In this document: positions 48,444 through 64,000 of the stretch, in pieces
How positions within the stretch are numbered: the first letter of the stretch is position 1
Layout: every line of letters starts with the position of its first letter
Origin: Verrucomicrobia bacterium S94
GTDB lineage: Bacteria; Verrucomicrobiota; Kiritimatiellia; Kiritimatiellales; Pontiellaceae
Assembly (NCBI GenBank): GCA_004299845.1
Contig: CP036201.1
Location: 124,001-188,000, forward strand
DNA: 64,000 bases
Reading direction: 5' to 3'
Notes under the pieces: model-generated
Database searches by the model: none
The model's input: only the letters and a program-made list of their open reading frames with translations
Told to the model about the DNA's origin: nothing
Made by a program: the position numbers and the translations under genes

Positions 48444-48629
48444 TTTTTTTGTCCGGACCCTTTTCAGCAACTTCTTGTCCTTTATTTCGGTATTACGACA
48501 GAACGCCTGCCGTCCTTTGCTCCGCGGATTTGATTCCCTTCTTTTCGATATCCAATGTTTCAGCACTGTCTCTCAGGGGCTGAATCTGCCGGTTGGAAAA
48601 TCGTGCTTGGATTCCTGAGTGTATGAATA

Positions 48630-48773
48630 ATACCATTTACTACAACATTCCGGTCTTAACGATAGCGTTATTCCGCGCAGAGAGCGCGGAGCCATTTATG
48701 ACTGAATTTCTTTGCGTCCTCAGCGCCTCTGCGAGAGATCAAATTTATACCGGATAGTTTTAACGTTTGGTAT
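48630..48773. repeat. MITE-like dispersed repeat, copy I
   Basis: A 144-base non-coding unit with imperfect terminal inverted repeats (ATACCA...TCCGGT at one end, its approximate complement ending TGGTAT at the other). A second copy is at 63493-63644, about 85% alike by eye. The inside contains a GCGTCCTCAGCGCCTCTGCG stretch typical of dispersed elements. Confidence 0.8.
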
Positions 48774-48852
48774 AAGGGAAGACGGTTTCGATTTGTTGTT
48801 TTCGATCTGTGCCGCCGAAATCGCCGCGAAACTGTTTGGGGAGCGTGTGGAA

Positions 48853-61453: not shown

Positions 61454-62114
61454 AAGCCGGACAACATAGTGTGTCGGCTACTGAGTGGAAATAAAAAAAG
61501 GTCTTCCGCTGAATCTGTGGGGAAAAACAAAGGATTAACGCTCCGGCCGGGGGGCTCCGGCTTAATCGAAATCATATACGAACACCCTGATGCCATTAGG
61601 TTAAACAGGCCGATAGAAAATCAGTTTTTACGTTGACGAACAACCTCAGATGGGAATGGCACTATCCTGTTAAGGTCATATCTTTTGCCTGCAGAATGAT
61701 TTTCCTGCATGCCTGTAGGCCCGATGCCCCATCGGGCGCGTGTACGCAGGGCGATTTAACCGGACGACGGGGAGGGACACCTGGCCTGGTCAAAAACTTC
61801 GTTTGCTTTTTTCATAGTGGCTGGAAAATTGATCTCCCGCAGAGCCGCTGAGTGCGCAGTGGAACACCATAATGTGAGCGGGATCGCTTGAAAGGATGGG
61901 CGCGGGAGAAGGGTGGAAAATATGGGGATACTTGGATCCGAGGACCGGCTCTTTCGATGTACGAGACCTTCAGGCGCCTTTCGGACGAGGTCGTTGAACC
62001 CTTTTCCAAGGATCGGAAAACATGGGGTTAGTTTTTTGGTAAATTGAATTTGTTACAAATAAATTACTCAATAGTTGCAGTATTAATTTTCATATCTATT
62101 CCAGTGGACGAAAC
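61454..62114. other. Intergenic accessory stretch with a dispersed repeat
   Basis: No supported gene. The major feature is one copy of a roughly 300-base repeat from about 61656 to 61955 (see below). Beyond about 62030 the sequence becomes clearly AT-rich. Nothing else was identified. Confidence 0.5.
61656..61955. repeat. Long dispersed repeat, copy 1
   Basis: Shares ATCCTGTTAAGG at its left end and a long block from GTAGGCCCGATGCCCCATCG through CTTGGATCCGAGGACCG with copy 2 at 63463-63891, in the same orientation. It contains a CCCGATGCCCCATCGGG hairpin. Non-coding; origin unknown. Confidence 0.8.
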
Positions 62115-62516
62115 TTACCTGTACATAAAAAGATAAATGAATAATGATATAAAAAACAAAAAGAAAGATAGGTATGATAGTGATTTGCTGATATAAAATA
62201 TTAATATTTTACTATCACTTTTATTGTAATGATTTATAAGATTTGCTAAATCAGCAAGTATCAAAGAAAACAAGGCAGAAATGCATACTCGCGCTGCTAT
62301 TCCAGTAATAAGCAATCCATTATTGTGTTTTCCTGGAATATATATTTTGCCATTAGCAATAGAAATAATCAGATATATAGATAATCCAATTACAATTATT
62401 CCAGATAACTGCCTATCGAATTTTGGCATAATGTTTCGATTATTCCAATTCTTTTGTTTTTCGTCAATAATTTCTCTAAATTTTAATAATATAATTTTAT
62501 AATTAAAAACACTCAT
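62115..62516 (-). CDS. Hypothetical small membrane protein, AT-rich
   Basis: 133 residues from ATG 62516. Three hydrophobic segments (LSGIIVIGLSIYLIISIANG, LLITGIAARVCISALFSLILADLA, ILIFYISKSLSYLSFFLFFISLFIYLF) follow a basic N-terminal stretch. No family recognised. Its low GC content compared with its neighbours suggests recent transfer. The ribosome site is weak. Confidence 0.45.
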   Translation of the reverse strand: MSVFNYKIILLKFREIIDEKQKNWNNRNIMPKFDRQLSGIIVIGLSIYLIISIANGKIYIPGKHNNGLLITGIAARVCISALFSLILADLANLINHYNKSDSKILIFYISKSLSYLSFFLFFISLFIYLFMYR

Positions 62517-62826
62517 TGTATTCTTATTTGTGGATGGGATTTATGTTGTTAATATTTTATTGCATTATCTTTATAAAATTCAGTTGCTTTATTTTGATTT
62601 ATTGAAGCTTAATGGGCTTAGAGAGGCCGCACAATCTTCATCTGCATTCAGTGAGATTCCTCCCATATTAAAGGTGATGGGTTCAAACTCGTCTATACCG
62701 TTGTTGTTTGATGTAGAAATCATGGGACTTTGGTAGAGAATCTCTTCGGCAGTGCGGTTTGATGCTGAATCCCCATCCATCTCTGAGGGAGGAAACAAAG
62801 AAAATACCCGGAGTTATGCACTATAA
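62517..62826. other. Short gap between two minus-strand genes; no convincing gene
   Basis: About 310 bases. A 69-codon minus-strand frame (62589-62798) has no ribosome site or recognisable protein. AT-rich; nothing else seen. Confidence 0.4.
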
Positions 62827-63216
62827 CTAAAACTGACCAATGAGTGGTTTAAAGAGTGGGTCCACTTCTCTCCCCCAAAAAAGCTCCATTCCTGTTTGAT
62901 TGTTTGGTTCAATATTAAGTTCACCATAATTAATAACCCCTCGAACAGGAACATCCATGCTAAGCATATCAATGGTTAGTTTGTGTGCGATATGACATAC
63001 GTCCATGAGATATAATTGGTCTTGCGAGTGGTGCTTGTAATAAATAATAATTGTATCGGAGAAATAGATCATTCCATAATCGCTTTGTTCACCTTGAAAA
63101 AAGTGCGATTGACTGGATACGAATTTTTTGAGTATGCGACTAACTTTATCTGGCTCGGTCTGGCATAAGCGCTCGAACCCAAGGATGTCTATAAATGCAA
63201 AGAATCTCTTTTTCAT
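62827..63216 (-). CDS. Cyclase-like (CHD/GGDEF-superfamily-like) protein, probably truncated
   Basis: 129 residues from ATG 63216; longer upstream starts (to 63291) add residues of doubtful origin. FFAFIDILGFERLCQTEPDKVSRILKKFV, IYFSDTIIIYY and PVRGVINYGELNI follow the layout of class III cyclase-like domain proteins seen in accessory regions. The usual C-terminal half of such proteins is missing: it stops soon after FWGREVDPLFKPLIGQF. The function is unclear and may be lost. Confidence 0.45.
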   Translation of the reverse strand: MKKRFFAFIDILGFERLCQTEPDKVSRILKKFVSSQSHFFQGEQSDYGMIYFSDTIIIYYKHHSQDQLYLMDVCHIAHKLTIDMLSMDVPVRGVINYGELNIEPNNQTGMELFWGREVDPLFKPLIGQF

Positions 63217-63361
63217 ATTCTGTGTCTTTATTTTTTGAAATAGAACAATTGGTTGGGCAGAAAATTTCGCGCTGTTTATTTTATAAAACACGGTAATAAA
63301 ACGATGTTCGATTTGTAAGAGTTAAATTAAGAATTTTTAAGGGTTTGGCTGGTGCGGTTTT

Positions 63362-63450
63362 GCAGCAGGCGAGCCGCCTGCGGTACGATCAAACCCCGAA
63401 ACCACCGAGGCGGCGGTACAGACTGGTATCGCAGGCCGTCGGCCTGCCCC
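63362..63450. repeat. Pair of REP-type hairpins
   Basis: GCAGGCGAGCCGCCTGC at 63365-63381 and GCAGGCCGTCGGCCTGC at 63431-63447 are compact GC-rich palindromes about 50 bases apart, the layout of REP pairs. Confidence 0.75.
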
Positions 63451-63462
63451 GTAAAGCAGATG

Positions 63463-63891
63463 AAGGGGTATCCTGTTAAGGCCATATCAGTTATACCATT
63501 TACTAAAACATTCCGGTCTTAACGTCAGCGTTATTCCGCGCAGCGACGCAGAGCGCGCGGAGCCATTTATGACTGAATTTCTCTGTGTCCTCAGCGCTTC
63601 TGCTAGGGATCAAATTTATACCGGATAGTATTAACGTTTGGTATTACTCATATGCGTGTAGGCCCGATGCCCCATCGGGCGCGTGTACGCAGGGCGATTT
63701 AACCGGATGACGGGGAGGGACACCTGGCCCGGTCAAAAGCTTTGCGTCTTTTTGCCAACAGTGGTTGGGAAATTGATCTCCCGCAGAGCCGCAGAAGAAC
63801 ACCGTGATATGAGTGGGAGTGCTTGCAGGGATGGGGCGAGGGAGAGGGTATTAAATACGGAGATACTTGGATCCGAGGACCGACCTTTTTG
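63463..63891. repeat. Long dispersed repeat, copy 2, carrying a nested MITE-like insertion
   Basis: Homologous to 61656-61955, but interrupted by the MITE-like copy at 63493-63644. Its right end (CTTGGATCCGAGGACCGACC) runs up to the stop codon of the partial gene at the window edge. Confidence 0.8.
63493..63644. repeat. MITE-like dispersed repeat, copy II
   Basis: A 152-base copy of 48630-48773 with the same ATACCA/TGGTAT ends and inner GCGTTATTCCGCGCAG block. Lies inside the longer repeat. No coding capacity. Confidence 0.8.
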
Positions 63892-63892
63892 A

Positions 63893-64000
63893 CTATTTTG
63901 CTGTCGGGTAGATGGTTTTCCAGTTTTCTTTCATGCTGACGATGATCCAGCCGCGGTCAGGACCTTCGTCGAGTCCGCGTTTAAGGGCACCGATTTGGGA
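63893..64000 (-). CDS. C-terminal end of an unknown protein (start outside window)
   Basis: Reading leftward from the window edge the minus strand is open for 35 codons to TAG (63893-63895) and ends in GWIIVSMKENWKTIYPTAK. Codon use and the regular residues suggest a real gene, but the piece is too short to identify. Confidence 0.5.
   Translation of the reverse strand, partial: SQIGALKRGLDEGPDRGWIIVSMKENWKTIYPTAK

What the first reader, a model, noticed from the sequence alone, without database searches (positions are those of the whole stretch)
61656..63891. A MITE-like element nested in one of two copies of a longer dispersed repeat
Copy 1 (61656-61955) and copy 2 (63463-63891) share both ends and much of the interior. 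Copy 2 is split by the 152-base element at 63493-63644, a near relative of the one at 48630-48773. The nested arrangement shows the order of events and that the small element has moved. Its ends (ATACCA...TGGTAT) could be recognised by a transposase elsewhere in the genome.
Basis: seen in the sequence. Interest (0 to 1): 0.6.

Follow-up and report, generated by a model that had tools for sequence, protein, structure and literature searches.

The report
Miniature transposon nested in a repeat
This is a real 150-base miniature jumping element, about 45 copies of which are scattered in one bacterial genome; it descends from an IS630-type transposon now almost gone from that genome, one copy jumped into an older repeat, and every copy of a second, apparently RNA-guided transposon sits inside such miniature elements.

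Summary
The small element (M) is 150 bp at 63494-63643, flanked by TTA/TTA; its relative at 48631-48772 is flanked by TAA/TAA. The genome holds about 45 copies. Of 41 with both ends, 32 have identical 3-bp duplications, nearly always TNA (shuffle mean 9.4, maximum 20). Repeat copies without M at 3.196 and 2.696 Mb show the empty site, so M entered an existing repeat. M's 30-bp ends are those of IS630-family elements in congeners, one of them complete (1168 bp, TAA duplications). The only trace of that element here is a decayed fragment near genome 956 kb whose first 22 bases equal M's left end. M is therefore an IS630-derived MITE, probably orphaned, with an unusual TNA rather than TA duplication. 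The longer repeat is a degenerate non-coding repeat with 7 matches; copy 1 abuts an IS110-type transposase remnant. Beyond the finding, all nine copies of another IS110 element lie inside M copies. Its non-coding region can fold into two loops whose candidate guides match M's interior (CAGCGC-CT-CTGCGA) and the IS's own ends: a MITE serving as landing pad for a bridge-RNA-guided IS. Mobility and RNA guidance are inferred, not assayed.

The parts
63494..63643 (+). M copy inside the long repeat: 150-bp MITE, TACCA...TGGTA
63491..63493 (.). left target duplication TTA
63644..63646 (.). right target duplication TTA
63494..63523 (+). left terminal inverted repeat, TACCATTTACTAAAACATTCCGGTCTTAAC; first 22 bases identical to the decayed IS630 end at genome 956069-956048
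63614..63643 (-). right terminal inverted repeat (19 of 30 bases match the left one)
63536..63562 (.). left interior arm rich in CGCAGAG-type motifs; in other M copies a landing site for the IS110 element
63581..63607 (.). right interior arm rich in CTCTGCG-type motifs; the predicted bridge-RNA target is degenerate here
48631..48772 (+). second M copy in the window, 142 bp
48628..48630 (.). left target duplication TAA of the second M copy
48773..48775 (.). right target duplication TAA of the second M copy
48721..48734 (+). exact CAGCGCCTCTGCGA, the 14-base predicted IS110 bridge-RNA target, in the second M copy
61648..61960 (+). long repeat R, copy 1 (left part missing)
63252..63490 (+). long repeat R, copy 2, part left of M
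   Evidence: 82% to R copy at genome 3.196 Mb
63647..63899 (+). long repeat R, copy 2, part right of M
61551..61652 (+). 3' end of a second IS110-type transposase (SGLIEIIYEHPDAIRLNRPIENQFLR), abutting R copy 1

Best explanation
M is a non-autonomous miniature transposon (MITE) made of the two ends of an IS630-family insertion sequence around a non-coding middle. An IS630-type transposase bound the roughly 30-bp ends (TACCAnnnnnTAAAACnnTCCGGTnTnAA), moved M in trans and inserted it at 3-bp TNA targets, which were duplicated. One copy landed in a pre-existing copy of the degenerate long repeat at TTA. The autonomous element then decayed in this genome to a single fragment, leaving about 45 orphaned copies. 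Afterwards an IS110 element, whose candidate bridge RNA matches M's interior, used M copies as landing sites. Shown here: copies, ends, duplications, paralogous empty site, decayed partner, relative in a congener, IS110-in-M nesting and guide matches. Inferred: trans-mobilisation, order of loss, and RNA guidance.
For: 43 hits at 83-96% identity across the chromosome. End pattern found 85 times versus 0 for the reversed-pattern control. Target duplications: 32 of 41 identical over 3 bp and 39 of 41 identical in the middle base; shuffles of right ends give mean 9.4, maximum 20 in 20,000. Empty site: R copies at 3.196 and 2.696 Mb read CACATCAG-TTTA-CTCG where the window reads CATATCAG-TTA-[M]-TTA-CTCA. 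Partner: decayed fragment in the same genome, 22/22 identical to M's left end and 90% identical over 173 bp to an IS630 end in congener G019, with three stops in its coding remnant. Congener G026 element of 1168 bp with inverted ends, TAA on both sides and an open 364-aa frame, NF033545 IS630 transposase 1e-58 and DDE_3 4.7e-22. G009 relative has TCA on both sides.
Against: No excision or transposition was observed. The surviving fragment matches M's left end only; the partner's right end was not found here. The empty site is in a paralogous repeat copy, not the same locus in a sister strain, and differs by one T. IS630 elements are normally described as duplicating TA (RUP/IS630-Spn1 at TA: PMC2229807), so the TNA rule is a departure. 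The full-length relative is only loosely similar to M's ends.
Confidence: 0.92

Rival explanations
1. M is mobilised by an IS5-family transposase of the IS1031 type (known from memory for TNA duplications), and its resemblance to IS630 ends is incidental.
For: 3-bp TNA duplications are, from memory, a trait of IS1031-type elements.
Against: The element ends matching M lead into IS630/DDE_3 transposase sequence in two congeners and in the decayed fragment of this genome; a full IS630 element itself carries TAA/TAA and another TCA/TCA. No IS5 transposase next to such ends was seen, though IS5 families were not searched for directly.
Confidence: 0.03
2. M is a static regulatory or structural repeat (REP/BIME-like, terminator or RNA) spread by recombination or gene conversion rather than transposition.
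For: Interior is palindromic and G+C-rich; the CTCTGCG module is found widely, also in 23 viral-contig stretches.
Against: Precise ends with a matched 3-bp duplication at unrelated sites and a paralogous empty site are the mark of transposition. Folding of M as DNA is not exceptional (z -1.5). No Rfam family matches.
Confidence: 0.04
3. The long repeat R is itself a mobile element that carried M along, so the M copy in R is not an independent insertion.
For: R has 7 matches and the M copy lies wholly inside one of them.
Against: No other R copy contains M; M has its own TTA/TTA duplication inside R; R left ends are ragged and no R duplication could be defined.
Confidence: 0.02

Closest known systems
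RUP and IS630-Spn1 of Streptococcus pneumoniae (PMC2229807)
   Same: Short non-coding elements of about 100-150 bp sharing terminal repeats with an IS630-family element and thought to be moved by its transposase in trans; about 100 or fewer copies per genome; insert into other repeats or IS.
   Different: RUP inserts at TA; M inserts at and duplicates TNA. M's partner is decayed in this genome, and M carries a CTCTGCG-rich interior that serves as an IS110 target.
IS630-family insertion sequences (NCBIfam NF033545)
   Same: Congener element with M-like ends encodes an IS630/DDE_3 transposase.
   Different: 3-bp TNA duplication instead of the usual TA. Eukaryotic relatives of the group with TAA duplications (Fot-type pogo) are on record (PMC7386202).
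IS621 and other IS110-family elements that insert in REP sequences (PMC11208160, PMC1525189)
   Same: IS110 recombinase with a structured non-coding left end, CT core, guides matching target and donor, and all copies inside one class of dispersed repeat (for REP: ISPpu9 7/7, ISPpu10 7/7, ISRm19 4/4).
   Different: Here the class of repeat is an IS630-derived MITE, not a REP; guides were predicted from sequence only.

Membership tests
MITE (miniature inverted-repeat transposable element) | short, non-coding, many dispersed copies | tested here: met
   mostly 133-152 bp when uninterrupted; 43 hits; no transposase inside
MITE (miniature inverted-repeat transposable element) | terminal inverted repeats | tested here: met
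   imperfect 30-bp ends, 19 of 30 matching; consensus pattern 85 hits versus 0 in control
MITE (miniature inverted-repeat transposable element) | target-site duplication of fixed length | tested here: met
   32 of 41 identical 3-bp TNA
MITE (miniature inverted-repeat transposable element) | shares ends with an autonomous element | tested here: met
   decayed fragment in own genome, 22/22 at the left end; congener elements
IS630-derived element | partner encodes IS630-family DDE transposase | tested here: met
   NF033545 1e-58, DDE_3 4.7e-22 for the congener element; the G019 fragment also has DDE_3
IS630-derived element | TA target duplication typical of the family | tested here: not met
   duplication is TNA, for M and for two IS630 elements of the genus
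IS630-derived element | mobilised in trans by the IS630 transposase | not testable with these tools
   needs an assay
IS5 family, IS1031 type | TNA duplication | tested here: met
   (the rule for IS1031 is from memory)
IS5 family, IS1031 type | IS5-family transposase between such ends | tested here: not met
   transposases found between or next to such ends are IS630; IS5 profiles were not searched genome-wide
IS110 with bridge RNA (the element found inside M copies) | DEDD and Transposase_20 domains | tested here: met
   PF01548 5.7e-19, PF02371 2.3e-17, NF033542 4.6e-50
IS110 with bridge RNA (the element found inside M copies) | structured non-coding left end with target- and donor-binding loops | tested here: met
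   fold z -4.0; loops with guides CAGCGCCC/TCGCAGAG and ACAGTTGA/TCTACAAG; expression not tested
IS110 with bridge RNA (the element found inside M copies) | guides match the target of each copy | tested here: inconclusive
   5 of 6 readable right junctions read CTCTGCG(A/T), matching the right guide; the left guide fits well at 2062 kb and less well elsewhere
REP/BIME (for the long repeat R) | palindromic unit dispersed on its own in high copy | tested here: not met
   GTAGGCCCGATGCCCCATCGGGC occurs 6 times in this genome, all inside R

The most novel reading that the evidence does not exclude
Two-tier parasitism with guide tracking: an IS630 lineage with TNA target duplication spawned a MITE family whose CTCTGCG interior became the sole landing pad in this genome of a bridge-RNA-guided IS110. 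Two guide variants (CAGCGCCC and CTGCGTCC) go with insertions in the two different arms of the MITE (4 of 4 right arm, 3 of 3 left arm), as if the guides followed the MITE.
Probability: 0.4. Interest if true: 0.65.

Novelty: new variant of a known kind. Interest (0 to 1): 0.5.

Why it matters
It gives a datable series of nested insertions (repeat R, then M, and elsewhere M, then IS110), a MITE tied to its partner transposon through a surviving decayed end, and an IS630 group that duplicates TNA instead of TA. It also offers a natural test of bridge-RNA targeting: an IS110 element found only in one MITE family, with guides that can be read and compared with nine real insertion sites. A MITE as safe-harbour target would explain how such an IS can multiply to nine copies with little damage to genes.

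Tried and rejected
Reading the ends as TA duplications (element CCA...TGG) was rejected: the base N is the same on both sides in 39 of 41 copies and the empty site has a single T-tract plus A, not TNATATNA. R as a structured RNA was not supported (fold z +1.0; no Rfam hit). R as a REP cluster was rejected. A clean orthologous empty site for the 48.6-kb copy was sought: the downstream gene is found in six congeners at 81-84% but the tRNA side is not syntenic, so it only shows that M is not fixed there. The scan of genome contigs with the end pattern gave one hit, in a Saccharibacteria MAG, likely chance; the window's own record may be left out there. Papers on MITEs with IS110 bridge RNA: none found in the library. 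No solved structure resembles the congener transposase by sequence. One pairwise comparison failed through a wrong frame and was not repeated.

Full report
WHAT WAS CHECKED. The window is bases 124001-188000 of a single 4,107,983-base contig. Copy 1 and copy 2 of the long repeat (R) are 83% identical over their shared 240 bp, and copy 2 is split by an element (M) that is 88% identical to the one at 48.6 kb.

THE SMALL ELEMENT. A search of the whole genome with M gives 43 matches at 83-96% identity; fetching and aligning them with flanks shows one element with sharp ends. A pattern of the shared end bases, TACCAnnnnnTAAAACnnTCCGGTnTnAA, occurs 85 times with up to 3 mismatches, against 0 for the same pattern read backwards; about 45 elements account for these, some broken. 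For the 41 elements with both ends, the three bases on either side of TACCA...TGGTA were tabulated: 32 are identical left and right, 39 have the same middle base, and nearly all are TNA. Shuffling the right-hand triplets among copies gives 9.4 identical on average and never more than 20 in 20,000 trials. So the element is TACCA...TGGTA with a 3-bp TNA target duplication. In the window that is TTA-63494..63643-TTA and TAA-48631..48772-TAA.

EMPTY SITE AND ORDER OF EVENTS. Five other R copies span the site or its neighbourhood and none holds M. The two closest to copy 2 (genome 3.196 and 2.696 Mb) read CACATCAG-TTTA-CTCG where the window reads CATATCAG-TTA-[M]-TTA-CTCA. This is a paralogous empty site; it fits a 3-bp duplication apart from one extra T, and does not fit a TA duplication. 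M is thus younger than the R copy it sits in. Congeners hold few M copies: G001 two at 88-89%, G018 eight more diverged ones, most others none. At the 48.6-kb site the downstream gene is found in six congeners without M beside it, but the tRNA side is not syntenic, so this is not a clean empty site.

THE PARTNER. No complete element with these ends and a transposase exists in this genome. The same end pattern across 28 genomes of the genus found, in G026, two inverted ends 1168 bp apart flanked by TAA on both sides, enclosing an open 364-aa frame that ends at the right-hand terminus. It is an IS630-family transposase (NCBIfam NF033545, 1e-58; Pfam DDE_3, 4.7e-22). In G019 the end TACCGTTTGCTAAAACATTCCGGTATAAA leads into the C-terminal part of the same family. 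In the window's own genome one decayed fragment remains near 956 kb: its first 22 bases are identical to M's left end, it is 90% identical to the G019 end over 173 bp, and its coding remnant, 47% identical to the G026 protein over 58 residues, holds three stops. A further IS630 relative in G009 is flanked by TCA on both sides. M is therefore an IS630-derived MITE whose partner has been lost from this genome. The IS630 elements and RUP-like MITEs that I know of duplicate TA (RUP/IS630-Spn1 inserts at TA: PMC2229807); TNA is a departure, though TAA duplications are on record for Fot-type pogo elements of the same broad group (PMC7386202).

THE LONG REPEAT. R gives 7 matches at 73-83% and is found in part in G020 and, as a short palindrome, in other congeners. 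Its fuller form is 63252-63899 without M. Its left ends are ragged, no target duplication could be defined, it has no coding frame of note, no Rfam match and no unusual fold (z +1.0). Its palindrome GTAGGCCCGATGCCCCATCGGGC occurs only inside R in this genome, so it is not a REP cluster. Copy 1 directly follows the 3' end of an IS110-type transposase, 61551-61652, intact or nearly so at genome 2.70 Mb and also next to R at 3.196 Mb. R's nature stays open; a degenerate remnant of older mobile DNA is my best guess.

WHAT LIES INSIDE OTHER M COPIES. Several M copies are interrupted by one 1232-bp IS110-family element or pieces of it (domains). A search with that IS, made without reference to M, finds nine copies, and all nine lie inside M, although M makes up only about 0.2% of the genome (about 45 times 150 bp). 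Junctions read ...[CT]TGTAGG...CAGTTG[CT]..., a CT core. Five of six readable right junctions read CTCTGCG followed by A or T. The non-coding left end folds far better than shuffles (z -4.0) and contains two loops just upstream of the gene. One holds CAGCGCCC and TCGCAGAG, the left and right guides expected for a target CAGCGC-CT-CTGCGA. The other holds ACAGTTGA and TCTACAAG, which fit the IS's own ends ACAGTTG-CT-TGTAGG with one mismatch outside the core. The rule used, left guide like the top strand and right guide complementary to it, is that of the bridge-RNA paper (PMC11208160). The exact 14-base target occurs 8 times in the genome, every time in an M copy, and 23 of 25 occurrences with up to one mismatch are in M copies (compared). 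The left guide comes in two forms; the copies with CAGCGCCC sit in the right arm of M (4 of 4 readable) and those with CTGCGTCC in the left arm (3 of 3). Fit of the left guide to individual sites is good at 2062 kb and poorer elsewhere, so guidance is a strong hypothesis, not shown. IS110 elements found only in one class of repeat are known for REP sequences (PMC1525189); I found no report for a MITE.

CONFIDENCE. IS630-derived MITE with TNA duplication: about 0.92. M younger than its R copy: about 0.95. Partner lost from this genome: about 0.85 (the contig is one piece, 96.6% complete by the tool's estimate). IS110 guided to M by a bridge RNA: about 0.8.

Noticed in passing
genome 946, 1006, 1478, 2062, 2424, 2999, 3815, 3968, 4066 kb (L088, L083, L081, L082, L085, L087, L095, L096, L093): All nine copies of a 1232-bp IS110 element, or its remnants, lie inside M copies; candidate bridge-RNA loops match M's interior and the IS ends.
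   Followed up: yes
L088:835-981 and the same region of the other IS110 copies: Two left-guide variants (CAGCGCCC, CTGCGTCC) go with insertions in different arms of M.
   Followed up: partly
window 61551-61652; L091:6498-7798; L092:2153-2645: A second IS110-type transposase or its remnants lies directly beside copies of the long repeat R, which may be its target too.
   Followed up: partly
L005 near 1500 (genome 2823771-2823922): An M copy interrupts a tRNA-Lys-like sequence, with an intact tRNA-Lys (CTT) about 130 bases away; may be a partial tRNA duplication left by an integrated element.
   Followed up: partly
window 62000-63300: A+T-rich stretch (about 26-40% G+C against 50% in the window) between the two R copies, with two short frames on the minus strand without Pfam match; looks foreign.
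   Followed up: partly
genome 4065652-4066024 (L093): Two right-hand M ends face outward around an IS110 left-end piece, with different flanking triplets (TTA, TAA): a rearrangement between M copies.
   Followed up: no
interior of M and R; L182-L204: The CTCTGCG-rich module (CTCTGCGTCCTCTGCGnCTCTGCG) is shared by M and R and occurs in 23 stretches of viral contigs; a widespread repeat motif of unknown meaning.
   Followed up: partly
G026 (L108, L112), G020 (L122), G016 (L120): Other short elements of 110-150 bp with TACCA ends and TNA flanks in congeners: further MITE families of the same IS630 group.
   Followed up: partly
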